Of a DNA stretch of 64,000 nucleotides, positions 18,065-63,181 are shown one piece after another (the first letter of the stretch is position 1; each line of letters begins with the position of its first letter). The position numbers and the translations under genes were made by a program. The stretch is taken from assembly GCA_025526915.1 (NCBI GenBank), contig JAHLKH010000053.1, positions 84,544-148,543 of the forward strand, given 5' to 3'. The stretch is from Entophlyctis helioformis. Lineage: Eukaryota > Chytridiomycota > Chytridiomycetes > Chytridiales > Chytriomycetaceae. The notes under the pieces are model-generated. The model was not told where the DNA came from, did no database searches, and worked only from the letters and a program-made list of their open reading frames with translations.

Positions 18065-18384
18065 CCAGACTGCATCGCCACTCTCATTGCCACTCTCATT
18101 GCCACTCTCATCTTCCAACTGCATCATTCTTCAAAGCATCTTTCTTCAATGGCATGATTCCACGCACTGGCCCGTGAGCGGCAGCCGACCACAATGCAGC
18201 ACGGCCAGGACTGTGTTCAGCCAGCCAGCCAGCCGGTTTGTCTGTTTATGCGTGCAGTTGCGCGTGGCTCCTGCAGTCATGCGTGGCCGTGCCCGGCATT
18301 GCGGCTGCACGGCCACACGCACCGTCGTCAGCCACGCGTGTCGAGTCACCTTTGACTCACTCGAATCACCCGCTTGCCCAAGGT

Positions 18385-18390
18385 TATATA
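18385..18390 (+). promoter_or_regulatory. TATA box, candidate core promoter of the bZIP gene
   Basis: tatata within ggttatatattgcc lies about 300 bp before the first downstream ATG (18683) and 431 bp before the in-frame bZIP ATG. This implies a long leader with an upstream ORF, unless an exon is missed. Confidence 0.5.
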
Positions 18391-18454
18391 TTGCCGCTTG
18401 GTCCAGGTGCGTGCCGCTTCCTGCCATTGCACTCTTTGCCGTCGTCGTCGTTGC

Positions 18455-18526
18455 TGCCTGCTGCCTGCTGCCTGCTGCCTGCTGCTGCACAACCACAACC
18501 ACAACCACAACCACAACCACAACCAC
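18455..18526. repeat. Simple repeats: (gctgcct)n then (acaacc)n
   Basis: About four copies of the 7-bp unit ctgcctg are followed directly by about six copies of acaacc, in the leader of the bZIP gene. In the bZIP frame the second tract would read poly-Thr. Confidence 0.85.
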
Positions 18527-18682
18527 TCTCCGCACGCACACGCCCACGTGCACACCGCCCATCCTGCCGTCGACAGCCGCCCGCTCGCCGCCGCCCGTCC
18601 CGCCCGTCCCGCAGCTCCTCGGGGACCCCCACAGCCCCAGCCCGCCCACCATTTCGCCAAAATCCACCGTCAAGGCCTCGAC

Positions 18683-18763
18683 ATGGACCCCGCTCCCTCC
18701 CCCTCCTGCCAGCACCAGCAGCAGCACCAGCACCAGCAAGCTGACTGTTGCGTCCACAGATAG
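18683..18763 (+). promoter_or_regulatory. Upstream ORF (26 codons) in the bZIP leader
   Basis: The only ATG between the TATA box and the bZIP start. It opens MDPAPSPSCQHQQQ and stops at TAG 18761-18763, 52 nt before the main ATG and in a different frame. uORFs are the classical translational control of GCN4/CPC1/ATF4 genes; the functional role here is inferred only. Confidence 0.45.
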
Positions 18764-18815
18764 CTCCTCTGTCGAGGCCAAACCATCCGCCCTCAACCTG
18801 TCCGACTTTGCCTTC

Positions 18816-19952
18816 ATGTCCGCCGACAACAACACCACCAACAACAACACCAACACCACCAACGCCAACGTTGATGTGCAGTCGCTGCTCAACGTGGCCA
18901 TGGCACGCACCGCCAGCCAGCAGCACCAGCAGATGTTCTCGCCCTACAGCCAGCCCGCCCAGTCGTTCCCGGCGTCGGCCGTCCAGGACGCCATCGCCGC
19001 CTCGCAGATGATGGACGTCATGAACACCATCAATGCAGCCAACAACAGCTTCACTGCCCCATCGCCGCTGCTCAACAATTCCGCCTCGTCCTCGACAAGC
19101 TCGCTGCAGTCGGGCGGCGGCCCTTCGATGATGCAGATCCAGTCGTTCATGGCTGCGGCCTCGCCCTTCCAGGTGTCGGCCCCCGCCGACTGGATGTCGC
19201 CCATTGCCATGAACCGCGATGCGTCCATGATGTCGCAGGCCGCCATCCTGGCCGCGTCGCCGGCCATGTCGGTGCACAATGGCGTGGGCACGCCGCTCAT
19301 GACCCCGAGCGATGCGCTCAACGTGCTGGCTGCCTTTTCGACCATGAACAGCAACCACAACGGCAGCGGCCTGTCTCTGCCGCCCCCGACGCCCATCTAC
19401 CCGTCTGGCAACGCGTCTGGTGACGCCTTTGCTCCCGTGGGATCCAAGCTCTTTTCCAAACACACGCCGGTCGCGCCTGTCCATGCGCTTGCGTCGTCGA
19501 TCATGTCTGGCTCGGGCGCGTCTGGCCATGCGTCCACATCCTCGTCGGGACACCGTGACGAGTCGCCGACCTCCCCGACGCTCTCGAGCACGTCGTCGTC
19601 TGCGCGCGCATCCACAAGTGCCAGTGCCAGTGCCAGCGCCAATGCCCTCGCCGTGGCCAACAAGCACCGCGAGCGGTTCCTCGACCGCGACGCTCTCCTG
19701 CAGCAGATCGAGGACAAGCGCCGGAAAAACACCGAGTCGGCACGCAAGTCTCGCGAGCGCAAGGCCAAGCACATGGAGGAGCTCGAGATTGCGGTCCATG
19801 ACGCCATGCAGCGCATCAAGGCTCTCGAGGCGGAAAATGCCAAGCTGCGTCAACGGCTGGCTGAGCTTGACGGCGACGGCGCTGCTGCCAATGGAAGCGG
19901 CAATGGCAATGGAAGCGCGCCAGCTGCCACCAAGAGACGCAAGCGCGATTAA
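18816..19952 (+). CDS. bZIP transcription factor, Gcn4/AP-1-like basic region
   Basis: Nuclear DNA-binding regulator. A long Ser/Ala/Asn/Met-rich low-complexity region precedes a C-terminal bZIP. The basic region KRRKNTESARKSRERKAKHM carries the N-x7-R signature as NTESARKSR, close to Gcn4 (NTEAARRSR). Leucines of a short zipper follow (LEIAVHD.. IKALEAENAKLRQRLAEL). The tail KRRKRD is basic. Length is 378 residues from this ATG. The frame is open far upstream, but no in-frame ATG occurs between the TATA box and 18816; the Thr/Pro/Ser-rich sequence just upstream could still be coding if a spliced 5' exon exists. No introns are seen in the chosen model. The likely role is amino-acid or stress response by homology of the basic region, which does not prove the target genes. 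Confidence 0.9.
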   Translation: MSADNNTTNNNTNTTNANVDVQSLLNVAMARTASQQHQQMFSPYSQPAQSFPASAVQDAIAASQMMDVMNTINAANNSFTAPSPLLNNSASSSTSSLQSGGGPSMMQIQSFMAAASPFQVSAPADWMSPIAMNRDASMMSQAAILAASPAMSVHNGVGTPLMTPSDALNVLAAFSTMNSNHNGSGLSLPPPTPIYPSGNASGDAFAPVGSKLFSKHTPVAPVHALASSIMSGSGASGHASTSSSGHRDESPTSPTLSSTSSSARASTSASASASANALAVANKHRERFLDRDALLQQIEDKRRKNTESARKSRERKAKHMEELEIAVHDAMQRIKALEAENAKLRQRLAELDGDGAAANGSGNGNGSAPAATKRRKRD

Positions 19953-21692: not shown

Positions 21693-22944
21693 TTAATGGA
21701 GGAGGAGAGGAGAGGAGAGAGAGAGAGACTCAGAAGCGAGCAAGAGGAGCTTGGGCTTGTTGTCGAGGGCAACCTCAATCTCGGCCATGACCTCGTCCGT
21801 GAGCTTGGGCACCACCTCGAGCGCCTTGAGGTTCTCGTGCAGCTGCGACACGCGGCTCGCGCCGGTAATGACCGTCGACACGTTGGGGTTCTTGACGCAC
21901 CACGCAAGGGCGAGCTGGGCGACGGTGACGCCCAGACGGTCGGCAATGACCTTGAGCTTGTCGACCTTGGCGAGCTTGGCCTGGCCCTCGGGCGACTCGA
22001 GCGCCGTGCGAATGCGGGTCATGACGGGGTCGGACTTGATGGCGAGACGCGAGTCGGCGGGATGCCGGTGTTATACTTGCCCGTGAGGACGCCCGACGCA
22101 AGCGGCGACCAGATGGTGGTGCCAAGGCCGTGCTTCTTGTACAGCGGGGCGTATCGGACTCGAAGCGCTCGCGGTGGAACATGTTGTACTGCGGCTGCTC
22201 CATGAGGGGAGGGATCAGGTTGAGCTTCTCGGCGACGCGGAAGGCGTCCGTGAGCTGCTCGGCCGACCACTCGCTGGTGCCCCAGTAGAAGGCCTTGCCC
22301 TGGTCGATGATGTGGTTGAAGGCGCGGACAATCTCTTCCATGGGAGTGAGGTCGTCGGGGCGGTGGGCAAAGATGAGATCGACGTAGGTCTGTGGAGGGG
22401 TGTCAGCGCCGTGTCGGGACAAGGGCCGTGCACCAAGCCATGACCACGCAGCAGCAATAGAAGCAGAAGCAGCTGGGCCTACCAGGCCAAGACGCTCGAG
22501 CGAGGCGTTGGTGCCCTCGATGATGTGCTTGCGCGACAGGCCGCGGTCGTTGACGCCGCCGTTGGGGCCCCAGTACAGCTTGGTCGAGATGACGAGCGAC
22601 GAGCGCTTCCAGCCGTACTTCTTGATGGCCTCGCCCATGACACGCTCGGACTCGCCCGCAGCGTACACCTCGGCCGTGTCGAAGAAGTTGATGCCGGCGT
22701 CGTAGGCCGCCTTCATGCACTCGTGCGCCGTCTCTGTGTGCCACAGCAGATCACCACCACCACCACGACCACCACCGCAAGTCAGCCGTCTGCAGGCATA
22801 GCGCGGCACGGGCGGGCGGCAAGACCCACCGTCGCCGACCTGGGCACCCTGCGTGACCCAGCCGCCGAGAGAGAGGACAGAGACCTTGAGGCCAGAGTTG
22901 CCGAGGAAGCGGTACTCCATTGCGGGCTTGGCGGCGTCGGTCAT
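21693..22944 (-). CDS. Aldo-keto reductase, voltage-gated K+ channel beta-subunit (Kv-beta/KCAB) type
   Basis: NADPH-dependent oxidoreductase of the AKR6 group. It starts [18 protein letters not shown]. The tetrad is seen as D and Y in [12 protein letters not shown] in ISTKLYWG and H in [22 protein letters not shown] and the cofactor-binding [18 protein letters not shown] follow. Introns lie between QVGD and ETAHE (about 100 nt) and between ERLGL and TYVDL. Two positions (about 22151-22160 and 22054-22062) each read as if one base were missing: the conserved [12 protein letters not shown] and then [11 protein letters not shown] sit in successive shifted frames. Because all three parts are well conserved, assembly error is more likely than decay. 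It may also act as a plain soluble reductase; no channel gene is near. Confidence 0.88.
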
Positions 22945-23070
22945 GTTGCTGCTGTTGGTTGTTGGTTGTTGGTGTTGGTGTGGCAAGGGGCCAGCTTATA
23001 TGCCAAGCGTCGGCGAAAACATACAACAGATCCACTCGGCCGAGAAGCGGCATTCGGCCGAGCGGCCGCT

Positions 23071-24460: not shown

Positions 24461-24822
24461 GCGTGCCTGAGTGTGTCCGTCTGTCCGTCTGTCCGTCAGT
24501 GCCCGAGTGTGTCCGTCAGTGTCCGCCAGATCGACGGGCCGATGCTGCTCCAGCGGGTAAATGGCGCACTCGCCGCATGGCCCCAAGTTGCCCTTCCCGA
24601 GTCTCGTCACCGTGACTCACCCTGTTGTGCAGCAGCACCAGAAGTAGCACCAGAAGCAGTCTTGGCAGTCTTGGCAGTCGCACCAGTCGCACCAGTCCAG
24701 TAGTCGCACCAGCCCAGTAGTCCAACCACCCACTCACGCTCCAGCCTCTCCAGCCTCGCCAGCCTCTCCAGCGGCCTCCAACTCCAGCGTCCGTGCCTGC
24801 TGCCCAACGAACCGACCGAGCC

Positions 24823-27576
24823 ATGCTGCCTGCCACTCCGTCGTCGGGAAGCGCTGCGCTGGAAAGCGGGCCGGCTCCTGCATGCGGCTGCAACCAGCCC
24901 GACTGTCCAAACGCCGGCGCCCAGCAGACCCAGCAGACCCAGCAGACCCTGCCACAGACCCAACACACACAACAGCAGACCCACGCGGTGCATCCGTCCG
25001 CCCTGCTTGCGCGGCTCGACGCTGCTGCCATGGCCCACCACCGCACCACCGTGTCGGCATCGCTGGACCTGATCGCCCAGGTGCTCAATGCCGTCGCCAA
25101 CGGCGTGCTGCCCGATACCGCCACGCTCATGCAGAGCAGGCTCGCCCTGTCGCTCCTGCGCGACAGTCTGGGCGGCTCGGCTCCGTCCAGCTCCCATCAG
25201 CCCTTCCACCACCAATTCCACCACCACCACCACCACCACCAATTCCACCAGAACCAGAATCAGATCCACAATACCAGCAGCCAGGCCCTGCCGCTCCAGC
25301 CAGCCAACACGCAGCGCTCCGTGGCCAGCCCGCCACTTCAACTGCAGCAGTATGGCCCTGGTCCTGGCCCGCCGCCGCCGCCGTGGCAATGGGGTGCACA
25401 CCCCGCTCTCTCTCGCAGCCAGTCGGCCTCGTCCAGCACACATTCGCCGCTACCACGCAGAGATGACCAACGCCTGCTTCAACGGTACGACCACCACAGC
25501 CGCAGCCACAGCCACAACCAACATCATCAACATCAACAACTCCCCATCCTCCAAGCTCTTCCGCAGATCCCTCAACTGGATCGCCAGCCGCCCCGTCCTG
25601 CCATCCACTCAGACGCGTCCCATCCAAGCCTGCACCAAAGCCTCCCCGTGTCGCTCCAGCCACAACTCCTTTCTGCCAACCCCACCGAGTCGCCGCAAAA
25701 GCACCTTGCTCTCGCACAGCAGCCCTGCAAGCGCACCGCCGTCCACCCCTCGTCAAAGTCGCGCAAGCCGCACAGCCAGCGGCCGCTGCCCAAGCTTCCT
25801 CCAGAGATCCTTCGCATCATCTTTGACTTTCTCGAAGACGTTTGGCTGACAAACCGCCGTCGCTCCGTGTCGTCAGAGTCTCGCGCCAGCTCGTCCGAGT
25901 CGGTCTCGGCGGCTTCAGCAGCATCTCGGCCGTCCTCTGTGGCCTCTTCGCCACAAATCACCATGCCGCCTCTGCCTGCACATGACGCCAACGGCATTGG
26001 GGCGGCAATCTTGTCATCTCCTATTGCAGTAGGCCTTGGTCTGGCTCCTTCCCTGGACGGCCAACAGGAACACACCATGGATGCCCACACATCGCCGACA
26101 CAGCATCAACTGCCGCACCAGCTGCATCACGATCCCAGCACGCCAACACTGGCATTCGATATTAATGCACATATTGCGTCCACTGCAGATCCCTCGCTTG
26201 GCAACACCTCGCCTGTTCATCGCATGGGAGAGCCGGCTCTCATCCCAGCACTCGTCCAAATCTCGCTCGCCAATGCATCGCTCGTCTGTCGCGAGTGGCA
26301 CGCCGTCGCACAGTCGTGCCTCATGCGCAAGCCCGTGATCAGCAACAGGCAGCAGCTCCGCGCTCTCATCCTCGCCTCGACGCGATACCTGCATTACATT
26401 GACCGCCTGACCATTGGCCACATTGCGTTTGGAGATCCTGCGGATGCCGGCCTGCTTGCAACGCTCTTTAATGGACTCGTTAACCTGCGCATGCTCGAGC
26501 TGTCCGTCTCTGACCTGCGGCCCTCCACGCTCGACTCGATCGTCGCACAGTTTCCAAACCTGCGTTCTCTTCAGCTGCATTGTCCCCGGCATGCCCCTCG
26601 CACAGATGAGCCTTGGATCACTGCTGCGTCTGACTTTCCCAGACTGGCAGAAGCCATTGGCAGGCTGACGACCCTGCATCTCCACAGTGGTGAGTGCCTT
26701 GTTCAGCTTGGCTCGCGCTTGCTGATTCCAATATCTCTGGCACTGACCCGCGCACCTCGTGACTCTTCCGGCTTGTGCACAGTCCTCTACCAGACGAATG
26801 CGCACATGCACCAGTTCATGGCCGAAAGTGCACATTCGCTGCGAAATCTCAATCTGGGCCGAACGTGGATTCCAGACAGCATCCTCATCGCATACGCAAC
26901 TCGCTGCATCAAGCTCGAAACGATCTGGCTCGAGGAAAACACGTCTATCAGCGACGACGCCATTATCAGTGTCGCGCAGCACTGCCCGCAGCTGATGGCC
27001 ATCAAGATGCGCAACTGCGTCAACGTCACAGATGCGTCGGTTGCGCAGATTGCACAAAAGTGCCCGCTCCTCAAGGCGATCGGCATCAGCTACACCCTCT
27101 GCGGCAATGGCACGATCGAGGCGTTTGTTGCGCAGGCAGAGTCGCATAGCCCGACTCTGTCTCGACCGCAGAGCCTCTTGCTGTCACGGCCCCTCAGCAC
27201 GCCTCAATTGCACACCTGCTTCATGAACGACCTCACCGTCACTCGCCCGGTGCTCAGCGCCTTTATTCAGGCACACGGCCAAACCCTCCGCACGCTCTCC
27301 TTGTCGGGCATCGACACGGTCAACGACGCAGTCGTGTACCTCATTGCGACATCCTGCCCAAACCTCCGCCGTCTGGACATTGCCGACTGTGGCGACGGCA
27401 GACACGCCTCGAGCAAGATCACCAGCACGGCCATTCTCTCCCTTCTCGACATGTGCCCGAAGCTGGAGAACCTGGTCATCTCGGGCATTGACGGGCTGGC
27501 CCCGTCGTTTGTGGACAGCATTGAGATGCGGCTCAGCACGAATCGCTTCTGGCTCACAGCGCCTTCTTGCGGATGA
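24823..27576 (+). CDS. F-box / leucine-rich-repeat protein (SCF substrate receptor)
   Basis: Predicted substrate-recruiting subunit of an SCF (Skp1-cullin-F-box) ubiquitin ligase. A long His/Gln/Pro-rich N-terminus includes a His run at about 25220-25240. The F-box begins LPKLPPEILRIIFDFLEDVW (near residue 325) and is interrupted by a low-complexity insert before LANASLVCREWHAVAQSC, the second half of the motif. LRRs of the cysteine-containing type follow (CIKLETIWLEENTSISDDAI, CPQLMAIKMRNCVNVTD, CPNLRRLDIADCGD). One intron at 26690-26782 (93 nt, divisible by three and stop-free) joins LHLHS to VLYQTN, so an unspliced transcript would still read through. Upstream of the ATG are gcaccagtc and ctccagcct repeats. 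Confidence 0.85.
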   Translation: MLPATPSSGSAALESGPAPACGCNQPDCPNAGAQQTQQTQQTLPQTQHTQQQTHAVHPSALLARLDAAAMAHHRTTVSASLDLIAQVLNAVANGVLPDTATLMQSRLALSLLRDSLGGSAPSSSHQPFHHQFHHHHHHHQFHQNQNQIHNTSSQALPLQPANTQRSVASPPLQLQQYGPGPGPPPPPWQWGAHPALSRSQSASSSTHSPLPRRDDQRLLQRYDHHSRSHSHNQHHQHQQLPILQALPQIPQLDRQPPRPAIHSDASHPSLHQSLPVSLQPQLLSANPTESPQKHLALAQQPCKRTAVHPSSKSRKPHSQRPLPKLPPEILRIIFDFLEDVWLTNRRRSVSSESRASSSESVSAASAASRPSSVASSPQITMPPLPAHDANGIGAAILSSPIAVGLGLAPSLDGQQEHTMDAHTSPTQHQLPHQLHHDPSTPTLAFDINAHIASTADPSLGNTSPVHRMGEPALIPALVQISLANASLVCREWHAVAQSCLMRKPVISNRQQLRALILASTRYLHYIDRLTIGHIAFGDPADAGLLATLFNGLVNLRMLELSVSDLRPSTLDSIVAQFPNLRSLQLHCPRHAPRTDEPWITAASDFPRLAEAIGRLTTLHLHSGECLVQLGSRLLIPISLALTRAPRDSSGLCTVLYQTNAHMHQFMAESAHSLRNLNLGRTWIPDSILIAYATRCIKLETIWLEENTSISDDAIISVAQHCPQLMAIKMRNCVNVTDASVAQIAQKCPLLKAIGISYTLCGNGTIEAFVAQAESHSPTLSRPQSLLLSRPLSTPQLHTCFMNDLTVTRPVLSAFIQAHGQTLRTLSLSGIDTVNDAVVYLIATSCPNLRRLDIADCGDGRHASSKITSTAILSLLDMCPKLENLVISGIDGLAPSFVDSIEMRLSTNRFWLTAPSCG

Positions 27577-28184
27577 TGTATTGTGAATGAATTGAGCGGT
27601 GACAGCTTGAATGGATAATCTGACGAGAGACCCGTGTCTGTCCGCTGGACCAAAAGCGGGGAACAAGGTCGTTGGCAAGGACTGTTCCGATTATCCGCGT
27701 GGCGAATGACTCCGCAACGGTGTTCCGGGCCAAAACTTGCCTGGCAATGGCGGAGTTTGAAAGTTACGGCGAGACGAACGGGCCAATGAGCGCGATGCGG
27801 CCCGGGCGAGAGAAGGAGGGAAGCTCGTGCCCCGGTGTATCAATAAACTAGCGATGTGCGCACAACGCAGCCGTTTTGGTTTCTGCAGCGGCCACGACCC
27901 CTGCAGTGCCATCCACAACACCGTCGTCACGACGCCAGAAACCGCAGAAAACGCGCGTTTGTTTTTCCGGCGGCTCGGGCCAATTTGTGCAAGCCCGCGG
28001 GCTTTTCAAAGCCCAGCAGCGTCGGTGTATCAACAATAGCCGCGGCCAAAGCTGCCGGCCCCTGCCGGTCGCTGCCGGTCCCAATGCACACAGCCGGGTG
28101 ATAAAAGCCGTGGGGCCACCCACCCACCCCCAATGCATTCTCTCCAGCACGCAGCACTCTCCCACGCCACATACCAGCAGCGTC
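27577..28184. promoter_or_regulatory. Intergenic region with the AUR1 promoter
   Basis: 608 bp without a gene. A TATA-like ataaaag at 28101-28107, 78 bp before the AUR1 ATG, is the likely core promoter. Two imperfect direct copies of ggtgtatcaa(t/c)aa occur at about 27834 and 28023. Nothing else was recognised. Confidence 0.5.
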
Positions 28185-29663
28185 ATGCAACCCCGACTCA
28201 AGCTCGCTGCTGCGACCATCGCCCCGCTGCGCCTCGACACCGCCATCGCAGCCGCTGGCAGTGCCCGTGATCAAGCATCTGCTGCTTCGACCACCGCGGC
28301 AGCCAGCAGCGCCAAGGCTACCAGCGCGGGCGCATCCATTTCAGCAGCCCCGGCATCCCCACGGACACCACATTCGCAGTCGACAGCCATCAACACCACC
28401 AGCGGCATCGCAAGCAGCGCCAAGAAGCCCATCAAGAGCAAGCTCGCCAGCAGCAGCAGATCCTACGCACCGCTCGACTCGCCCCTCAAAAAGTCGGATC
28501 CGTTTCCGTTCTTTGGCCCAAGCAACCGCTCGCTGCGGGTCCATCTGTATGCCCAGTACGCTGCGATCACTGGATCAAGCACGGCGCCGCAGTCGCCACT
28601 TGCACCGCACGCCAAGTCGGCTGCCTCCACGCTCCTGTCGACGCTCGCTGCAATGCGTCCGCTCGGCCCCACCCTCCTCTGGCTGCTCCTGTTTGTCAAC
28701 TGCAAGTACATCCCTGCAGCTATCCGGCCAGCCATCAACGTCACGACCCTGCCGTGGCTCGACAGCCTCATTTTCGGCACGAGTCTCGGTCTCCTGGGCT
28801 CGGCCATGGCATGCGTCGCGGTTGGATACGCGGCCACGCGGTCGCACAAGGCAGCCTACTGTGCGTTCCTGCCGCTCATTCTGGCGTCGCTGCACGAGGT
28901 GGCTGCCACGCCCGTCAACCCGGTGTTCGACCTGCTCTTCTTCCTGCCCTACGGCGTGCTGCACTACATCTCGCCCGTGCTGTTTGCCGTCTGGCTGAAG
29001 CGCTGCGGCCCGTCGGGCTCGGCCGGCGTGTTCCTCTCGGCCCTCGGCTGGCAGAACCTTGCCGGCGTGGTCACGCAGATCGTCCTGCCGTGCGCGGCGC
29101 CGTGGTACAACGACAAGTACGGCACGGCGGCCGCGTCGTACAGCCTGCCGGGCGACCCGGCCGGTCTGGCCAACGTCGACAAGCTCTTTGGCACGCACAT
29201 GTACACCACGACGTTCAACTCGTCGCCGCTCGTGTTTGGCGCCATGCCGTCGCTGCACTCGGGCTTTGCGTTCCTCATCATGCTGTTTGCCGTGCATGTC
29301 GCGCCGCGGCGTGCGGCCCTGCCTGCGATGGCGTACGTGCTGTGGATGTGGACGGCCACCATGTACTTTCGCCATCACTACATGGTGGATCTGGTCGCTG
29401 GCGGTCTGTATGCCTTTGTCGCGTACTGGTCGTGCCGTCGCTCGCTGGGCGGCGTCTCTGGATTCGCTCTCCTTGTGCACCAGCTCGAGACCCCGCCCGC
29501 GACGGCCGACACCGAGACTCTCCTGCCCATGTACAAGAGCAAGATGGCCGACGACGAGCACGCCATGCTGGTGTCGTCCGTCTTGGTGGACATGGCCAGC
29601 GATACGGCTTCCACGCTCATTGGCTCCGACTCGGACAGCGACACGGACTCGTCTCGCTGCTAG
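28185..29663 (+). CDS. AUR1: Inositol phosphorylceramide synthase catalytic subunit (AUR1-like, PAP2 superfamily)
   Basis: Transfers phosphoinositol from phosphatidylinositol to ceramide in the Golgi, the essential fungal sphingolipid step. A Ser/Ala-rich N-terminus of about 130 residues precedes at least six hydrophobic helices. The signature stretch GTHMYTTTFNSSPLVFGAMP then SLHSGFAF corresponds to the PAP2 C2 motif and adjoining AUR1-specific sequence, and MYFRHHYMVDLVAG is the C3 motif with the catalytic His and Asp. The protein is 492 residues with no intron. The C-terminus is Ser/Asp-rich. A pyrimidine tract (29667-29700) follows the stop. AUR1-type enzymes are targets of aureobasidin A in other fungi; sensitivity here is unknown. 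Confidence 0.93.
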   Translation: MQPRLKLAAATIAPLRLDTAIAAAGSARDQASAASTTAAASSAKATSAGASISAAPASPRTPHSQSTAINTTSGIASSAKKPIKSKLASSSRSYAPLDSPLKKSDPFPFFGPSNRSLRVHLYAQYAAITGSSTAPQSPLAPHAKSAASTLLSTLAAMRPLGPTLLWLLLFVNCKYIPAAIRPAINVTTLPWLDSLIFGTSLGLLGSAMACVAVGYAATRSHKAAYCAFLPLILASLHEVAATPVNPVFDLLFFLPYGVLHYISPVLFAVWLKRCGPSGSAGVFLSALGWQNLAGVVTQIVLPCAAPWYNDKYGTAAASYSLPGDPAGLANVDKLFGTHMYTTTFNSSPLVFGAMPSLHSGFAFLIMLFAVHVAPRRAALPAMAYVLWMWTATMYFRHHYMVDLVAGGLYAFVAYWSCRRSLGGVSGFALLVHQLETPPATADTETLLPMYKSKMADDEHAMLVSSVLVDMASDTASTLIGSDSDSDTDSSRC

Positions 29664-45149: not shown

Positions 45150-45761
45150 ATGGCCAGCACACGCAGCTATCCGCCCTCTGCAGTCGCCGTGGCAGCCACT
45201 CGCTCGTACACTTCGCCGTCCATGCCATGGCTGAATGCATCGAGCTCGGCGCCGAAACCACCCTCGCAGGCGTCGTTGCCAAGCGACCCTGAGCACCCTT
45301 CCGAGTCGACGCTCGCTGGCCTGGACACCTCGGCCGACCGGATGATCATCGGCTTTACATGCAAGGTCTGCGACCTGCGATCGTACAAGAGCATGTCCAA
45401 GCAAGCGTATGCGTCTGGCGTCGTCATCATCAAGTGCGATGGATGCAAGAACCTGCATCTGATTGCCGACCATCTCGGGTGGTTCGAGCATGGCAAGCCC
45501 GCAGGCACGATCGAGGATATTCTGCGCGACAAGGGCGAGAGTGTGCGGAGAGTCCAGTGGCAGCAGCCGCTGCGGTTCAAGTCGCCTGATGCGAGTGCGA
45601 CTGCGAGCGCAAGGTCTGGCGCTGCAGAGACGGCGGCTGGAGGATCGGCAATCGTCGAGGTCCAGGACGAGCCTGCTGTGAATGCCGAGGGCATGTTAGA
45701 GTGGCTGCCCCGAACCCCGGGCGATGCCAACAAGACCGATCCCTCTTCTGGAAAGCAATGA
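45150..45761 (+). CDS. ZIM17: ZIM17/TIM15/HEP1, mitochondrial DNL-type zinc-finger chaperone of Hsp70
   Basis: Keeps mitochondrial Hsp70 (Ssc1) soluble during protein import. The N-terminus MASTRSYPPSAVAVAATRSY is Ser/Arg/Ala-rich without acidic residues, as expected of a matrix presequence. The zinc finger has two CxxC pairs, FTCKVC and IKCDGC, and the family signature DNL-like segment reads KNLHLIADHLGWF. The tail is Ala/Ser/Pro-rich. 203 residues, no intron. The end is 49 bp from the convergent PIG-S stop. Confidence 0.92.
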   Translation: MASTRSYPPSAVAVAATRSYTSPSMPWLNASSSAPKPPSQASLPSDPEHPSESTLAGLDTSADRMIIGFTCKVCDLRSYKSMSKQAYASGVVIIKCDGCKNLHLIADHLGWFEHGKPAGTIEDILRDKGESVRRVQWQQPLRFKSPDASATASARSGAAETAAGGSAIVEVQDEPAVNAEGMLEWLPRTPGDANKTDPSSGKQ

Positions 45762-45810
45762 AGAGCCACACATCCAATCCCACACACGGGATTCATTCCC
45801 CCACTTTGGC

Positions 45811-48105
45811 TCACGCAGACTTCTTGGCTCGGGCAGCCTTCCGTGCCTGGATGAATGTCTTGATCTCGACCAAGAGCGCGACAATAAGCGGCACGGACAC
45901 GGGCACAAAGTACGGCATGTACACGGCAAACTTGTGCTCTTCCGGGAAGTAGAGAAGCGGCACCATGGAGGGATCGAAAAAGGCTGCTTCGGCAGACGTG
46001 ACGGCGTCGCGTGCATGCTGGATCGCCTTGACCGACTGCTTGTTCCGCAGCTCGTCCTTGGCCTGTGACAGGCAGACATGGCCATCCAAAGACCACAGAG
46101 TCAGCAGCGCGCTCCATTGTCAACAGGCACAGACGTGCATGCATGCTTACCTGTCCGAGGGAATCGAGAGATCGCGTGACAAGCGTCTGGATATGGTCCA
46201 ATACCACCATGTTTTCGAGCTGCTCAAGCAGGTTGGCAAGTGACGTGAGCGTCTTGACTGCATTGACCATGTTCTGCACCGTCCGTGCTCTGAACAGCCG
46301 GTCTGTTTCCCATCCAGTCAAGCCGCGATCTGTCGCAATGGCATACTGTACATCGACGTTGGGCTGATCCATGGCACGCATCGCGTGGTGTTAGCAGCCG
46401 GTCACAACTGGCGCCAAATGGAGCAACGACTGAAGCTCACAAGGACAGACGCCGGGCTCGAGATCCAGACGGGGTCCACGCCAAACAGGCCGCGAAGCTG
46501 CGCAACAAAGACTTCCATCATGGGATGCAGGTCGCTGAGCGTGTAGTGCAGACGCGACATGTCTTGTGGCGTGTTCTTGACAATGATGCCGCCCCACTGT
46601 GGGATAAGGAATGCATTCGTCTTGAGCAGCGATCCTAGCCATCCAAGCAGCGTGTGCGTGTATCCGGTGAGCACAACCAAACAGCATGCCGGATGGCCGA
46701 GACATGCTATAGTTGCATACCATCTGAATGCTGGACATACAAGGGCGATTGCTGGGCAGGTGGAATGTACACAATCAGGTTGATGGGCTGTGCAGAAGAA
46801 ACCACCGAGGCTGCCACGGCAAGGATGAGTCAGAGTCATGCGGTATCCAGACAAGGGCGAGACGCAAGGCATACCCAAGTTCCACTCGGCCGAGTTGATA
46901 AAGTTGGTGAGCGCTTTGGGATTCAAAAAGTACGCGTTGCTTCCGTCTGGCTGCTGGTAGCCCTCTGGCGTGATTGGAAGTGGTGCGTAGTTGAGAATCT
47001 GCCCAACACGCGCGTTAGTCCCACCAGATACCATCTGGCCATGTGGAGCTGTCTGAACAAAAAGGCGATGCAGACAGACCTGGGATGTCAGCTGCACATC
47101 AGAGATGTTGGAGATGGTCTCGAGAAAGGGCGACAGGTATGCTGCGTTGGAAAGAGTCAGCAGTGTGCCATCAATGGCCTGTGTGACCACGACCGCGTTG
47201 CTTACCTTTGGCAGCCTCCTCAATGTCCCACGTCACGATCGCATCTTCAGGATCGCCGACCAGAAGACTCAGCACAATCTGGTACTCTGGCGCGTACTTG
47301 ACTGTCCGCATGCTCTTGTGATCCGTCTGTCGCCACACAGCAAGATACGCGCAATAACTCGTGATGTGAGTAAAGTATCCCATAGAGCAGCCTGGATCAG
47401 CAACGGTGGCACATACATCTTGCTGCTGCCTGTCTGCGCTCAGCTTGATCAGACTCTTTTGTTCGCTGCCAAACAGTCCACCGATCGTCCGAGTTGCACG
47501 ATCCACAACCGCGTCCGCCGTGCAGGCATTCTCCAGCAGCCCGATGAATAAGGCACGGTGCTTTCCAACGTACACCGTCTCGCGGTCTCCACGCTTGACA
47601 CCGCATCCCACATACACGTGGTAGTGGCTGTTCTCGCCATGCAAAGCAGCGAGGCTCTGATCCACCGTCTCCACGCTCTCGGTCTCGCTCCAGGCTGGAC
47701 TGGCATCCGCCGAGCCGGCCACAGAGAACTGGAGAGACGCCTGCCGACCATGAGCAGCTTGCGGGACGGCTTCGCGGAAGATGCTGTTGAGATCCGACTC
47801 GACTTGGCGAGTGATGCTTGCGAGGCTGCCGCCAGTCTTGACGGCCGCGCCATGAACGAGATGCAGATGAATGTCTAGCTTGAGCTGCAGCGTCAGCGCC
47901 TGTGCTTGGGTGCCGCCGATGGGCAGAGTGTGAGTAGATGGCATGGTGTGCGGCATGCACAGGCGATGCGGCTTGCCTCTGGAGCGTTCCACGAGCGGAT
48001 TGATGCGTACGGCAGCTCGGCTCTGTAGACCTCAGTCGTCTTCCACCACATGGGCAGCGCCATGAGAATCACGGCCCAGATGACCAACACGATGCGTGTG
48101 CGCAT
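45811..48105 (-). CDS. GPI transamidase component PIG-S / Gpi17
   Basis: Subunit of the ER complex that attaches GPI anchors to proteins. The N-terminal membrane helix and the family hallmark are VLVIWAVILMALPMWWKTTE then VYRAELPYASI. A large luminal domain follows (ALTLQLKLDIHLHLVHGAAV, YAPEYQIVLSLLVGDP, GYQQPDGSNAYFLNPKAL, PQWGGIIVKNTP), and a second helix near the C-terminus (FAVYMPYFVPVSVPLIVALL) leads to a basic tail ARKAARAKKSA. At least six introns. Just after ASIRS (about 47989-47996) the frame shifts by one base, to VERSRGKPHRLCMPHT; again this looks like one missing base. The protein is about 540 residues, like other fungal Gpi17s. Confidence 0.9.
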
Positions 48106-48311: not shown

Positions 48312-51300
48312 TCATTCAAACGCCGAGCAGACAACAGCCGACCACAGACGGATCGCCAGCAGATCACAGCCCAGAATCGCAAAGGTTGCAGCCAGACTGG
48401 GGAGCACCGAGTTGGCCTTGAGCAGCATCTCGTCAAACTCGTCGACTGGATCCGAGAGCGCAACAATGGCGCCACCTGCACCAATCGTCACCGTCGTGCC
48501 ACGTTCTGTGTCCATCTGCCGTCAGATCGTGCGCGCATGCAGATCACATACAGCCCAGTCCAAGCCACAGACTCACCCGGAGTAGATCCAAAAACGGCCG
48601 TGCGGATAACAACGCTCAGGTCAGCCGGACCTGTCACTGAAAAGAACCCAAGAACGCCAGAGTACGGCCCGCGCGGGATCTGCTCCATCTCCTCGAGGAT
48701 CCGCACTGTGCGCAGCTTGGGTGCTCCCGTCATTGATCCTGGCCATACGGCATCAGCCATCGATGCACTTTCGACAAACGCGCAATGGCGAGCCAGAGGG
48801 CAAACAAACCTGGCGGGAATGTGCGCATGGCCGCATCAACTGCAGTCAGATCGGACCGCAGCTTGCCCTTGACCGTCGTCACAAGCTGGTGGACCGTGGC
48901 ATACGATTCTACAACCATCAGATGCGGCACATGCACGCTTTGCGCCTCTGAGATCTGGTTCAAGTCGTTGCGGATCAGATCCACAATCTGTCCATCGCAG
49001 TGGCATTCCGCTCTGCATCAGCGTTTGAAACATCAGCACGGGGTCGCACGCACGTCCCTTACCATCAAGTTTTCAGCGCGGTCCTTCTCGCTGGATGCCA
49101 ATGCAGTGCGCCGCCGCTCGTCTTCCTGTGCGCGTTCTTGGTCTGTTCCGGGAAAGTTTTGCGGCGTTGCGCGCGACAAGGTGCCCTTGATGGGCTTCAT
49201 GCTCAGCCACCCGTCGTCATCCAGCCGCAGAAACCGCTCGGGCGATGAGCTCGCCATGAACAGCTTGTCGCCAAACGCAAGATATGCTCCGTAGGGTGCT
49301 GGATTGCGCTTGCGGAGATGCTGGTACATGTCGAGCGGGTGGCGATGGTTGTGGCCCAGACATCGCGAGAGTTGCGTTGTCAGACAAACTTCGTACGTCT
49401 CGCCTTGGTTGATCTTGTCGAGCGACGTCTGGATGTTGGCAATGTATCTGTCGCGGTCGTGGGCAAGTGTCATCCATCCAGACTTGGCGCTGATGGTTGG
49501 CGTGGATGGTGCGGTGTTGACCGCAGACGTAACGCCGTTGGTCTTGCTGGCGCTCGAACGTGCCAGCTGCGCCAGCTGGCTGAGCATAGAGTCTGCCCAT
49601 GACCGCTGTGCCTGGCAGTTGTCCGTGTCCGAATCCTTGACGACTGCAACAAGGTACATGCTCTGCTCGTGATGGTCGTACACAAGCGCGCGATCGACAA
49701 AGAGGAACGCCGCGTCAGGCACCGTGCCGGCCGACTCGGTCTTGAAACGGTTCAGATCGTCGTGTGCCAATGTGTGCAGGCGCAGCGATTCGGACTTCAT
49801 CTCGTAGCCAAAGTATCCAACCAAGCCGCCAAAGAAGGGGAACGCCAAGCCTGCATCAGAGTCGGGGACAGGGCTGCCGCTGCCGCTGCTGGAACTATGG
49901 GCACCATCTGAATCGCTGACATGACCGTTGGCGTCAAAGGCAGTGTTGGTGTTGATGCTGCCGTTGGCGTGCAGGTCCTGTTGCAAGACACGGATGCGAT
50001 CGCGAGAAACGCTGGCGCTCTTCATGTGCGCCGCAAGCCATCCAAAGAACGTGTCTTGGTGAGACAGTGTCGTCTCTGTTGTGATGCCAGAAGGCATGCG
50101 CTGCACAATCTTGCGTGTCGTGAGCAAATACTTGACATTGAAACTGCCGTTCATGGCCATCATCGCGCGTCAGCCATGTCCTACTGGCGTTGTAGCGTTT
50201 GTTTGGATCGTCTCCAAGACCTCTTACCTGAGCGGGCCGCTTGCATCGCCCATGTACGAGTATCGACTGAGACCAGCCTCGACTTTGGCCGAGTCAAGCC
50301 AGAAGGTATCGTCCCGCTTCCCATACAGATGCTCGAATGCTGCCTTGGCAGGGACAAACAGATCGCGGATGGGGAACACCAGTGCCGAGAGGCCAAGCGT
50401 TCCGCTGGCCTTGCTGGTGAGTGCTGATGGGAGCACGGTCATGCTCGCAATGTGCGGTGGCAGTCTGCCTGTCCGCCGCGTCTGCTGTCGCTCTGGGTGC
50501 TGTAGCATCGAATGTGTTGGCGAGCGTATCCATATGCATCTGCAGCCCACCATAGCTCACATTGTCCCAGTATGCAGAGGCCAGCGACACAAAGTTGTGG
50601 ACCATTTTCTGGCCCTCCTCGGTGCAGATGGACTGACCGTCAAGACACTCCGTTGTCAGTATCCGGGGCCGGCTCTCAAAGATGCAAAGTCGGAGATGGC
50701 TGGCTGTGAGAGACACACCTCGGGGTGGAACTGGACCGACCAGATGGGCCTGCTCTTGTGCTTCATGCCCATGATGATCTTGGGCTTGGTGGAATCTGTG
50801 CCGTGCGACCATGCCGTCTCTTCCAGCACATTCGGCATATCTACAGCCAAACGGCTCGTGTGGGTGAGTACTTCGAGTGGGCATTTTGACAAAAGGGATC
50901 GTGAATGCACCGCATACCGTCGCGTGCCACAATGAGCGAGTGGTACCTGACAGCGCTCAATGGGTTGGGAAGGCCGGCAAACAGGTCGCGACTGTCGTGG
51001 TGCACATCCGACAGACGGCCGTGCATTGGCGGGTCTGCCGTGACGACCCGCCCGCCGTTCACTGCCGCCAGACCCTGGTGGCCAAGACAGACTCCAAAGA
51101 TGGGAATGTCTGCGTGCTTGAGCAGATGCTCGCACAACCCGAAATCCTGCAGCGCCATGAAGTGGTTGAGTTTGATTATGTAAGCCAAGACGCGATGAAC
51201 GGCCGGCGGGGAATGAGCATCGAGCACGCATGCCACAGCAGCCAGGCTTGGACAGCCGCTCCAGACTGTGTGGGAGATGGATTGTGCTGCGGCTTTGTCC

Positions 51301-51942: not shown

Positions 51943-54531
51943 ATGTCGCACATGTCGCAACTCGCGTCGATGGGCAGTACGCTCACCCTCGGCAGCTCAA
52001 TGACGCTTGGCAGCGCCGGCATGATTGTGCTGCGCATCAACGTGCCGTCCCTCAAGCTCCAAAAGGCACTCAAGGTCAACGCGAGCGAGACGGTGTGGCA
52101 GCTCAAGAGGCAGCTCATTGAAAAGTTTGGCAACGAGGCCAAAGAAGCATGGAACTTTGGCATCTTTCTGCATGGCAAAGAGGGCAAGCAGAGCAAGTTT
52201 CTGGACGAGCGCAAGGAGCTGAGCACCTACGGCATCGACTCGTCTGTGAGTGGCGCTGATTGCACCGATTGTGCTGATTGTACTGGCTGCAATGCTCGGC
52301 TCGCCTTGCCCTGCCCGTTTCCGATTTTTGGATCTGGCAGCCAGCAAGGCGTGGCACAATGTGTGTTTGGTTGTTGCGGCCGCAGATTGCTCCATGCTGA
52401 TCAATCCTGACCCGAATGGACTGGCGGCGCATGTACAGTCGCAGATCGACTTTACGATGAAGGCCCGTCCGGGCGCCGAGGCAGACAGCAAGAAGCAGAA
52501 GAAGGTGTTTGAGGACCTTCAAAAGGGCAACCTTGACCGTGCCAAGGAGAAGATCAGCAAGACCTTTGAGCCCAACTTTCTGTCCGAGACACAGGGTAAG
52601 ACGCCAGACGCGTGCCGTGTGGTTGAAAGATGGCCGACGAATGGATGGGTCTGCGCACTGACACGCACACGGCATGCAGAGAGTCCGATGGCAGTGGCTG
52701 TGATGAACAACGATCGCGACACCATCATCTACCTGATCGACAATGGCGCATTTCTTGACTTCCGTAACGGCGACAAGGACGGTTGGAAGACACCGCTGCA
52801 CCTTGCTGCTGTCCACAACAAACCGCTTGCTCTCGAGGTAACTACAAGCCATAGCGCTGCATTGGGTTTCTGTCGCGAGCTGCCCAGCACTGAACATGGA
52901 ACTAACTCCAAGTACCCAGACGCTCCTCAAGTTTGGTGCATGGCCCAACTCGGTCGACATCCATGGCCTGACACCAATCTTCTACGCGGTGACATCTGGG
53001 CATTCCGAGTGCGTGCTTCGATTGCTGATGGCAAAGGCAGATACAGAAGTGTTTGACGAAAGCGGAAAAGGGCCCTTGCATCAGGTAAAGCGAGGAGATG
53101 TCTCATGCAGACGCTCAGGCTACTCATTTTCATTCCATTCTGCTGATTCCGAACAACCATAGGCGGCGTTGAACAACTTTGACTGCATTGTCGCGCTGCT
53201 CATCGACTTTGGCGCCAACATGCAGGCAGTCAATGTGGCCGGCAACACACCTCTGCATGTGGCCGCGACTCGCAACCACAAAGAAAGCGCAAAGTGGCTG
53301 CTGGCTAGAGGCGCCGACCGCAAATGCGCAAACAAGAGCGGAAAGACGGCGTTTGAGGTCGCAACACAGGCCAACTGTCCCGAGGTCGCAGAGATTATTC
53401 AAAAGTTTACCGACGATCTCATTGGTGAGGCGTTGACGGTGTTTGGCAACTGGATGGAGCTTGCAGTGGTTTGCAGGGGCTTGCCGCTTTCTGACACGCG
53501 CTTGATCGGACATGGTCCCATTCTGCATGGGCACAGTGCCACCTCCGCCAAGGAACCTGCTCGACGGCGATGTTTCGGCCATTGTCAACAACGTACTGTC
53601 TTCGTTGTCTTCGTCGATTGGCAGCGAGTACAAGCCGCAACCGATGATCAGCAAACAACAGTCACGCCAGTCCACACAGCTGCAATCGCCCATGACGCCA
53701 ACAACGCCTCAGACGCCAGTGTCAACCCACGCCTCTCCGATCCCAGCACCACGCAGACAGCCTTCAAGTGCACAAGTCGACGGCAACGGCAGCGACCCAG
53801 GCTCTGCGTCTCCTGAGACCCGAAAGTCCACTGCCCGCCGCTCCATGAACATGCTCCCGCCGCCGCCCAAGCGCACGTCTGGCGTCTCTCCGACGGGCTA
53901 CGATCTGCCTTCGTATCCACCCAAATCGCGTCTCTCGACGCAAGCCACACCGCCTCTGTCCGGCCCGCCATCCAGCTCCTCATCACACCAGCTCAGCACG
54001 CTGGCACAGTCCACAGACAGTCTGGCTCTTCCGTCCATGACATCCAACGGCATGTCGCGATCGGGATTGGATCTTTCCGCCTCATTGACTGCACAAATGC
54101 ACGTGCAGGCGAACGGCAGCCATTCTGGCAAGGGGCAGGGCACCTCGTACCGCTCGTCGCATGAGCCCGATGCGCGCAAGTCCAGTGACTCCATCAACGT
54201 GACATTCAACCTCGAGTCAAGCGGCAACGGCAGCGCCAGCGGAACGTCCAGTAAGCGCGAGAGCGGCGACCATACGCTGGGCCAGGCCGCATCGCTCTCG
54301 ATGGCCATGACCGTGCCAGACACGTACCACACGCCGGAAGTGCTCGATGCTCTGCGCAAGATGCTGGGCAAGAATGTGGTGTCCGAAACGACTGGACGGT
54401 TAGATGCAGACGCGATCGCCAAGGGCGTGGACGACCTCGACTCGATCCTGTCGCAGACCATGCAGTCGCTGCGGCAACTCGAGGCAGAGAACCAGCGTTT
54501 GCGATCGGAGCTGAGCCATGTGCGGGTATGA
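51943..54531 (+). CDS. SHANK-like ankyrin-repeat protein with N-terminal ubiquitin-like (SPN/F0-type) module
   Basis: Domain order and several motifs match the N-terminus of animal SHANK scaffolds. A ubiquitin-like module (MIVLRINVPSLKLQKALKV ... WNFGIFL ... SKFLDERKEL) is followed by a linker, then ankyrin repeats starting VFEDLQKGNLDRAKEKISK with FEPNF and GAFLDFRNGDKDGW, and continuing through GLTPIFYAVTSGHSE, GPLHQAALNNFD, GNTPLHVAATRN and KTAFEVATQANCPEVAEII. SHANK has equivalent FLDE, DPNF, LDFR, GLTPLYHSA, GNTALHICA and TAFQVA segments in the same order. After the repeats comes PPPPRNLL, a Ser/Pro-rich region and a short C-terminal coiled coil (MQSLRQLEAENQRLRSELS). No SH3, PDZ or SAM was found. 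Introns after GIDSS, SETQ, LALE, PLHQ and DDLI; the first junction is off by one phase, so one base may be missing near 52240-52395. Confidence 0.85.
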
Positions 54532-61504: not shown

Positions 61505-63181
61505 ATGGGCAGAAAAGGAAACGGCTCCAAGCACTTTGGCAAGCTGCTCACGACCGACCTGGGCATGCAGGTAAGACGCCAGTGGGGCACCTTGCTGATG
61601 CCGAGCAGCAGCCGTCGAGACAGTCAACGTCTGGTCTTGGCTTGCGGGCATGTCTGGTCTGCGGAACAGTATGACGCATTTTGGAACACAAGCCAGTACT
61701 GGACATGCTCCAAGTCACGCAGGACTGTGGCGGCGCTGCTCCAGCAGATGCCGTGCTCTTTGGAGCCCCCGAGACATGATGCAGAGCGTGTGCCGTGCTG
61801 CCCAGATTCGCTGTTCTGTGCATCGGCTGCACTTCCTGCTGTCTGCCATCACCGGCCTGCTGCCAACGACTGTGAGAACACTCCCTGACTCGTGACTGTG
61901 TTTGGTACCGATATCGACCGAAATCATGCGCAATCGGCTGCAATCGACACCATGTTGCACACATCCACGAATGCCTTGCAAACCACGCAGATGGCCTTGG
62001 ATCTCGCCAAGCTGGTGACAACAGCCCAGGCCCTCGACAGCCTCATTCTGGCCACGAATCCCGAGATCCACGCGACTGCACATGCGGCTGTAACCTCCAA
62101 GGGCATGTCGGACCTCTCGGTCTTTGAGCTCGGCCCCAACGGCAAGGTGACCAAGCGCCGAAAGCGCGCGCTCAAGGACCCCAATGCACCAAAGCGTCCT
62201 CCGCCCTCGTACGTGCTGTTTGTCCAGCAGGCGTACCAGGAAATGGCCGAGCAGAACTCTGATCTCAAGCCCAAGGAGATCATGGCCAAGCTTGGCCAAG
62301 CGTGGCGCGAGCTGCCTGACGAGCAGAAGAAGGTGTGTGCGTTTTTCGTGGCACGTTGCAGTGCGCTGGGAGAACGCGTTGATCTGCTGGACGATTGCTG
62401 GACATGCTTTGGTGGCATGGAGTCTCACGTCTCTGCAATATGCTGCCACTGTCATCACCGCCAGCCGTTCAACGACGAGTTCATCAGCAAGCGCAACCAG
62501 TACCAGAGCGACGTCAAGGCGTACAAGGCTCATCTTGAAGAGGCCGAGGCAAAGATCGGCCTGCCCATCGAGACGCCCGGTGGCGACTCTGACGAGTCTG
62601 ATGAAGAGTCGTCGTCGCTTGCCAAGGCACCAGCAGAGGACGACTCCGACTCGTCAGCCAGCTCCAGCGATGCCGACAGCAGCTCCGACGAAGATTCCGA
62701 CGACGAAGAAAGCGGATCCGCCTCGCCTTCCGTGCCCGTCGCTGCACCTGTAGCCAAGCGATCGATCAAGGCTGCACCTGCACCTGCACCCGCCAAGAAG
62801 ACTGCTGCTCCTCCCGCGGTCAAGCCATCTAAACCCCCGACGCCTGCTGTTGCTGCCAAGGCTGCTGCTGCAGAGGCTGCCGGCAACAAGAAGCGAAAGC
62901 ATGCCGGCGATGCCGAGACTGCTCCCGCAACACCTGTGGCGAAGCCTGCCAAGACTGCTGCTGCTGCACCACCCGCCGTGTCCACGCCTGCCGCCAAGGC
63001 CAAGGCTGACAAATCCAAGGACGCCGCTGGCGTCCCTTCTGCGACGGTGGACGTGGGCAGCGAAAAGAAGCGCTCGCGTAGCACCAATGGCAAGGCTGCT
63101 GCTGCCCCTGCTGCTTCTGCCGCTCCTGCTGTCACATCGACACCCAAGAGCGACAAGAAAGCCAAGTCGTCCAAGCAGTAA
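61505..63181 (+). CDS. HMG-box chromatin protein with acidic and Lys/Ala-rich tail
   Basis: Sequence-nonspecific DNA-bending protein of the NHP6/HMGB kind. The model starts MGRKGNGSKHFGKLLTTDLG, then a 420-nt intron (61571-61990) to MALDLAKLVTTAQALDSLI. The HMG box runs from DPNAPKRPPPSYVLFVQQAY through IMAKLGQAWRELPDEQKK and, after an in-frame intron at 62333-62464, PFNDEFISKRNQYQSDVKAY. A Ser/Asp/Glu block follows (near 62580-62720), then an Ala/Pro/Lys tail of about 150 residues resembling a linker-histone tail. The single box with long tails recalls Hmo1-like factors. The first exon is supported only by matching phases; an alternative start is the ATG at 61991. Confidence 0.85.

What the first reader, a model, noticed from the sequence alone, without database searches (positions are those of the whole stretch)
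51943..54531. A fungal SHANK-like scaffold: SPN/ubiquitin-like module followed by six ankyrin repeats
SHANK proteins are known as postsynaptic scaffolds of animals and their unicellular relatives. Here the same two N-terminal modules occur in the same order, with several SHANK-like short motifs in register (SKFLDERKEL, FEPNF, AFLDFRNGD, GLTPIFYA, GNTPLHVAATRN, KTAFEVATQ), followed by a Pro/Ser-rich tail and a coiled coil instead of SH3-PDZ-SAM. It could represent an opisthokont ancestor of the SHANK N-terminus, where the SPN module folds back on the ankyrin repeats and binds small GTPases in animals.
Basis: partly seen in the sequence, partly recalled or inferred. Interest (0 to 1): 0.78.

Follow-up and report, generated by a model that had tools for sequence, protein, structure and literature searches.

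The report
Chytrid relative of SHANK synapse scaffold
A chytrid fungus carries a gene whose front half matches, in sequence, predicted shape and several intron positions, the front half of SHANK, a scaffold protein of animal synapses, which suggests that this part of SHANK is older than the split between animals and fungi.

The parts
51943..52245 (+). Exon 1 (aa 1-101): Ser/Thr-rich leader and most of the SPN ubiquitin-like domain (from aa 27)
   Evidence: Gene model; FERM_f0; SHANK-SPN HMM covers aa 27-113
52033..52035 (+). R31, equivalent of SHANK3 R12 (Ras/Rap site)
   Evidence: R in 25, K in 3 of 28 chytrid rows; SHANK rows R 11, K 1, L 1 of 13; role of R12 from passages of PMC10861631 and PMC8766471
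52063..52065 (+). K41, equivalent of SHANK3 K22
   Evidence: K in 41 of 41 rows; the Rap1-contact role of K22 is recalled, from no call
52153..52155 (+). N71, equivalent of SHANK3 N52 (SPN-ankyrin contact)
   Evidence: N in 41 of 41 rows; role from PMC8766471 passages
52246..52438 (+). Intron 1 (phase 0, DSS|SQIDF); not at an inferred SHANK boundary (nearest about 4 residues on)
52439..52595 (+). Exon 2: end of SPN, linker, first ankyrin helices
52596..52679 (+). Intron 2 (phase 1, ETQ|E): same residue junction as an inferred SHANK boundary (ETG|ETPL)
   Evidence: insert in one gene model, P0186; compatible with phase 1 or 0
52680..52837 (+). Exon 3 (ankyrin repeats)
52838..52919 (+). Intron 3 (phase 0, ALE|TLL, between aa 206 and 207): same site as human SHANK3 intron 5 (c.601-1)
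   Evidence: figure legend of PMC5283828; one search aligns query end aa 219 with 5g4x residue 213, hence 207 with 201
52920..53084 (+). Exon 4 (ankyrin repeats)
53085..53162 (+). Intron 4 (phase 0, LHQ|A): same site as an inferred SHANK boundary (HQ|AC)
   Evidence: inserts in P0186, P0188, P0196; exon skip in P0167, ambiguous by one Q
53163..53424 (+). Exon 5 (ankyrin repeats)
53425..53536 (+). Intron 5 (phase 1, DLI|V); 1-2 residues from an inferred SHANK boundary, not the same
   Evidence: extra residues at this site in gene model P0009
53537..54531 (+). Exon 6: VPPPP just after the ankyrin repeats, Pro/Ser-rich tail, C-terminal coiled coil, stop
53539..53550 (+). First PPPP motif (aa 350-353)
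   Evidence: Present directly after the repeats in 24 of 28 chytrid rows
53857..53868 (+). Second PPPP motif (aa 456-459)
54427..54528 (+). C-terminal coiled-coil-like helix (aa 646-679)
   Evidence: Sequence; long C-terminal helix in the model of orthologue P0004

Best explanation
The gene is the chytrid orthologue of the N-terminal SPN-ankyrin module of SHANK, inherited from the common ancestor of fungi and animals. Most likely the SPN ubiquitin-like domain binds an active Ras-family GTPase at the membrane through R31 and K41, while another face folds back on the ankyrin repeats (contact at N71) and controls their access to partners; the C-terminal coiled coil multimerises the protein in place of SAM, and the PPPP motifs recruit actin-linked proteins. 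The holozoan line later added PDZ, SH3 and SAM. Shown here: homology, predicted fold, intron coincidences, conserved residues. Inferred: GTPase binding, the closed state, multimerisation, partners and cellular role. Orthology about 0.92, the Ras-regulated scaffold mechanism about 0.6.
For: Among the 60 PDB sequences shown, only SHANK3 chains match in one stretch over SPN and ankyrin repeats (6kyh: aa 23-369 of the first gene model, 155 bits); SPN plus linker finds SHANK3 at 1e-14, the first non-SHANK chain at 4e-4. SHANK-only HMMs; a talin F0 fragment of the same genome scores 12.9 bits with the SPN model against 67.7 for the window. Fold. Ankyrin-only tree: one branch with 100/99 support parts chytrid plus SHANK rows from all 33 generic rows used. 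Introns 2, 3 and 4 coincide with SHANK boundaries. K22 and N52 positions invariant in 41 of 41 rows, R12 position basic in 28 of 28 chytrid rows. The genome has Ras genes with effector loop YDPTIEDSYRKQ (L006, L017; L013 from PTIED on, at a contig end).
Against: No SH3, PDZ or SAM; no PPxxF in this protein; the animal linker signature KYKRRVY is not kept. The two WH1 matches of the genome read as WASP-like, no Homer-type was seen. No Rap-type switch among the 25 Ras-family loci read of 57 matches. P141, which helps to hold the closed state in SHANK3, is P in only 21 of 28 chytrid rows, and R12 is L in 1 of 13 SHANK rows. One chytrid row (P0009, part of a repeat missing) scores below the best generic row on the ankyrin model. 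Two of five introns do not coincide and six inferred SHANK boundaries have no intron here. No SPN-ankyrin protein from other lineages appeared, which leaves transfer possible. The folded SPN appeared only when SHANK rows were in the alignment.
Confidence: 0.78

Rival explanations
1. Horizontal transfer: chytrids took the SPN-ankyrin gene from an early animal or choanoflagellate relative (or the reverse), so it is not an inheritance from the opisthokont ancestor.
For: Named relatives in three searches were chytrids, animals, and EukProt proteins that I take for choanoflagellates, and no others with SPN.
Against: Chytrid and SHANK rows each form one side of a branch (100/100 and 99/94), so a transfer would predate the chytrid radiation sampled; three intron coincidences speak against transfer through cDNA; saprotrophs such as Spizellomyces carry it. 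The searches are limited by shared words, length and number of candidates.
Confidence: 0.1
2. Independent fusion: a talin-F0-like domain was joined to a generic ankyrin array in chytrids, and the SHANK likeness is convergence.
For: Pfam calls the domain talin F0, and UniRef names several homologues so; a talin head is in the same genome.
Against: Ankyrin repeats alone prefer SHANK (205.9 bits against a generic maximum of 129.7); the SPN prefers SHANK over the talin F0 fragment; repeat order and three intron sites are shared.
Confidence: 0.03
3. It is a true orthologue, but in chytrids the SPN does not bind GTPases; the protein is an ankyrin adaptor whose work is done by the repeats and tail.
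For: No binding data exist; no Rap-type switch was seen among 25 of 57 Ras-family matches.
Against: Two of the positions tied to GTPase binding (R12, K22) are kept as R/K and K in 28 of 28 chytrid rows while mean SPN identity of the window to SHANK is 28.5%; Ras genes are present.
Confidence: 0.25

Closest known systems
SHANK1/2/3 (ProSAP), N-terminal SPN-ankyrin module (PDB 5g4x, 6kyh, 6kyk)
   Same: SPN fold, repeat register, R12/K22/N52 positions, three intron sites, predicted closed arrangement
   Different: No SH3, PDZ, PPxxF motif or SAM; tail with PPPP motifs and a terminal coiled coil; no KYKRRVY linker
EukProt SHANKs P0041, P0089, P0090 (choanoflagellate by naming style, recalled)
   Same: SPN and ankyrin repeats colinear with the window protein
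   Different: Carry PDZ, then SH3, then SAM
[quoted passage not shown]
   Same: Same family (31 rows, P0001-P0031); the second label on five: P0005, P0009, P0020, P0023, P0025
   Different: Database labels only; some gene models seem to retain introns (P0002, P0005) or to be fused to a neighbour (P0026)
Talin head (FERM with F0)
   Same: F0 belongs to the same Pfam family FERM_f0
   Different: Talin continues with a FERM domain; the own-genome F0 fragment scores 12.9 bits with the SHANK SPN model against 67.7

Membership tests
SHANK family | N-terminal SPN ubiquitin-like domain | tested here: met
   FERM_f0 36.3 bits; SHANK-only SPN HMM 67.7 bits; predicted fold of an orthologue with SHANK rows in the alignment
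SHANK family | Ankyrin repeats directly after SPN, SHANK-like in sequence | tested here: met
   SHANK-only ankyrin HMM 205.9 bits against a maximum of 129.7 in 52 generic proteins; tree
SHANK family | Basic residues of the Ras/Rap site, R12 and K22 | tested here: met
   R31 and K41; R/K 28 of 28 and K 28 of 28 chytrid rows; role of K22 recalled
SHANK family | SPN folded back on the ankyrin repeats | tested here: inconclusive
   Model matches the SHANK3 structures over both domains, N52 invariant, P141 kept in 21 of 28 chytrid rows; the alignment held SHANK rows
SHANK family | GTP-dependent binding of Ras-family proteins | not testable with these tools
   Needs a binding assay
SHANK family | SH3, PDZ and SAM domains | tested here: not met
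   None in the window protein, in 5 of 5 chytrid orthologues scanned, or in the precomputed Pfam lists of the 30 chytrid-type rows
SHANK family | Homer-binding PPxxF motif (motif recalled) | tested here: not met
   None in the window protein; a match in 2 of 28 chytrid rows
SHANK family | Shared gene structure in the SPN-ankyrin region | tested here: met
   3 of 5 introns at inferred SHANK boundaries, 2 not
Talin | F0 followed by the rest of the FERM domain | tested here: not met
   Ankyrin repeats follow; no other FERM family hit
KRIT1 | Ankyrin repeats followed by FERM | tested here: not met
   No FERM hit after the repeats; Ank_KRIT1 16.1 and 22.6 bits in P0004 and P0008, cut-off 80

The most novel reading that the evidence does not exclude
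The regulatory front half of SHANK is a pre-animal, Ras-GTP-gated scaffold that already existed in the ancestor of fungi and animals; chytrids keep this 'proto-SHANK', other fungi seem to have lost it, and the holozoan line turned it into the synaptic scaffold by adding PDZ, SH3 and SAM.
Probability: 0.65. Interest if true: 0.8.

Novelty: new variant of a known kind. Interest (0 to 1): 0.68.

Why it matters
SHANK is called the master scaffold of the postsynaptic density, and its origin is published as the choanoflagellate-animal ancestor (PMC2824662; abstract and passages). An orthologous SPN-ankyrin module in chytrids would make it older than animals and would separate the ancient, probably GTPase-gated part from the later PDZ/SH3/SAM part. 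Chytrids such as Spizellomyces punctatus, for which transgenic lines exist (PMC7213984; search listing and start of abstract only), then offer a nerve-less system in which to ask what the SHANK3 N-terminus, hit by missense mutations in autism, did originally.

Tried and rejected
Rejected: my first splice choice at exon 1/2 (698 aa), replaced after the homologues were seen; searches used that longer model or parts of it. The first structure job (11 sequences) left residues 1-96, the SPN, below pLDDT 50 apart from residue 17; the second, with 44 sequences, resolved it. Whole-sequence bit scores put ankyrin-1, DARPins and the like above SHANK3, because their many repeats are summed; the single-stretch scores printed put SHANK3 first. 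An attempt to check SHANK3 numbering through 'A198G' led to another gene (PTPRM) and was dropped. An 18S search to name the species did not complete. Integrin beta gave no hit, but the controls were silent too: no conclusion. PDZ gave one match in the genome, which I read as HtrA-like. No tRNA in the window; a bacterial promoter scan upstream says nothing here. One search read the Ras loci on one strand only and was redone on both. Papers: ten searches; none of the listed papers is about a fungal SHANK by title and start of abstract, but lists were cut at 8-20 rows (for example 20 of 90) and most subscription papers are not held.

Full report
What is there. The window (64,000 bases, 60.3% G+C) lies in a 29.6-Mb assembly of 482 contigs. 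At 51943-54531 on the + strand is a six-exon gene; its introns are GT-AG, 78-193 bases long, and the product has 679 residues. The exon 1/2 junction was ambiguous from the window alone and was fixed with chytrid homologues. There is no transcript evidence.

Domains. FERM_f0 (Pfam's talin F0 family) matches residues 29-99 with 36.3 bits, cut-off 26.9, followed by ankyrin repeats. The genome search with this family gives two matches: this gene and a place in a gene that reads as a talin head (L001 read). No SH3, PDZ or SAM was found in the protein.

Relatives. A search with the SPN and first repeats gave 11 proteins at E <= 1e-5 among 406 candidates, all 11 from chytrids. With P0009, seen only, this makes 31 chytrid-type rows, P0001-P0031. 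The orders include Rhizophydiales, Cladochytriales, Synchytriales and Spizellomycetales. [quoted passage not shown] A third search from the EukProt protein P0041 gave 122 proteins, 120 listed: animal SHANKs, some named hypothetical or uncharacterized, two rows without a name (P0110, P0187) and three EukProt proteins, P0041 included. I take those three to be choanoflagellate by naming style (recalled) and because they lie next to the animals in the tree.

SHANK affinity against generic ankyrin. HMMs were built from 13 SHANK rows (10 animal, 3 EukProt, chosen by hand for spread) and run on 28 chytrid rows (window plus 27 of the 31; P0011, P0025, P0027 and P0031 were left out as lacking SPN or as a near-copy) and on the 52 generic rows. 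The alignment behind the models was made jointly with the chytrid rows. SPN model: chytrids 53.6-80.0 bits (window 67.7); generic best -1.5, 37 of 52 without any match. Ankyrin model: chytrids 110.1-236.7 (window 205.9); generic 47.0-129.7. The reverse models behave alike. One chytrid row, P0009, whose gene model lacks part of a repeat, falls below the best generic row. A fragment of the talin F0 of the same genome scores 12.9 bits with the SHANK SPN model. Against the PDB, only SHANK3 among the 60 sequences shown has one stretch over the whole module, and SPN plus linker finds SHANK3 first, at 1e-14; no talin is among its 38 matches.

Tree. On the ankyrin part of 19 chytrid rows (window plus 18 of the 31), 13 SHANK and 33 generic rows (33 of 52 covered enough of the model), chytrid plus SHANK rows are parted from all generic rows used with 100/99 support; chytrids 100/100, SHANK 99/94. 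The tree is unrooted, generic branches are long, and the generic rows are those that the chytrid profile ranked best; it says that none of these rows is closer to either group, not more.

Introns. Animal SHANK exon boundaries were inferred from two kinds of source. Human SHANK3 c.601-1G>A lies in intron 5 (PMC5283828, figure legend), i.e. after codon 200. One search aligns window residue 219 with 5g4x residue 213 at its end, so window 206|207, the site of intron 3 (phase 0), equals 200|201; that the cDNA and 5g4x numbering agree is my assumption (5g4x numbering fits P141 in PMC8766471). Among 121 other SHANK rows, 15 had an unusual core; inserts and skips in some of these place boundaries at ETG|ETPL (one gene model, P0186) and HQ|AC (P0186, P0188, P0196; P0167 by a skip ambiguous by one residue), the sites of introns 2 and 4. 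The insert at ETG|ETPL fits phase 1, as here, but phase 0 is not excluded; the P0186 insert at HQ|AC fits phase 0. Introns 1 and 5 do not coincide (about 4 and 1-2 residues off), and six inferred SHANK boundaries have no intron here. With nine boundaries on 322 residue junctions, three or more of five matching by chance has probability about 2e-4; this ignores preferred intron sites, and boundaries read from odd gene models may be wrong. Extra residues in the gene models P0002, P0004, P0005 and P0009 suggest that introns 1, 3, 4 and 5 are shared by relatives. PMC2824662 reports two introns shared by animal and Monosiga SHANK in the N-terminal region, but their places are in a supplement that could not be read.

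Function. In SHANK3 the SPN binds active Ras and Rap1, R12 lies in that site, and N52 and P141 help to hold the SPN to the repeats (PMC10861631 and PMC8766471, passages). Equivalent positions: R31 (R 25, K 3 of 28 chytrid rows; R 11, K 1, L 1 of 13 SHANK rows), K41 (K 41 of 41), N71 (N 41 of 41), P146 (P 21 of 28 chytrid, 13 of 13 SHANK rows). The genome has three genes that read as Ras (L006 and L017 with effector loop YDPTIEDSYRKQ, L013 cut by a contig end) and a Ral-like one (L005; the name is recalled); no Rap-type switch was seen in the 25 loci read of 57 matches. A PPPP motif follows the repeats in 24 of 28 chytrid rows, and the orthologue model ends in a long helix. The reading is a membrane scaffold gated by Ras-GTP and multimerised by a coiled coil; its link to actin is a guess from SHANK and the PPPP motifs. 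CaMKII and Homer functions are probably animal additions, as the linker signature and PPxxF are absent and the two WH1 matches read as WASP-like.

What is known. Alie and Manuel 2010 (PMC2824662; abstract and passages) place SHANK's origin in the choanoflagellate-animal ancestor and say that its N-terminal 126 residues resemble no other protein; the starting data set that they name held one fungus, yeast, and was then updated by searches. Ten paper searches showed no description of a fungal SHANK (limits under Tried and rejected). Because SH3, PDZ and SAM were tested and not met, this is filed as the orthologue of the SHANK N-terminal module, not as a SHANK.

Noticed in passing
P0041, P0089, P0090 (EukProt): In 3 of 3 of these SHANKs the order after the ankyrin repeats is PDZ, SH3, SAM, while animal SHANK has SH3, PDZ, SAM (PMC2824662 passage, which lists the Monosiga domains in the animal order); the C-terminal half may have been assembled or reshuffled separately.
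   Followed up: partly
L003 and L004 (G000 C374 and C151): Two similar contig stretches give identical WH1 scores and read as the same WASP-like gene, so the assembly may hold duplicated contigs.
   Followed up: no
L001 (G000 C1:230445-233633, - strand): A gene that reads as a talin head, followed by a long Ser/Pro-rich frame; no integrin beta match was seen in the genome, but the controls were silent.
   Followed up: partly
window 49036-50169, - strand, and frames up to about 51960: Neighbour on the other strand: chorismate-binding enzyme (Chorismate_bind and Anth_synt_I_N), probably with a glutamine amidotransferase part nearer to the SPN-ankyrin gene (by eye); its start was not established.
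   Followed up: no
window 697-2361, 17970-19949, 21778-22995 (-), 24721-27573, 27852-29660, 45170-46390 (-), 61889-63178: Open frames with Pfam matches: ABC transporter, bZIP, aldo/keto reductase, F-box/LRR, PAP2, PIG-S, HMG box; two of the ten frames scanned matched nothing.
   Followed up: no
P0026: A public record joins the SPN-ankyrin protein to a glucoamylase, probably a gene-model fusion of neighbours.
   Followed up: no
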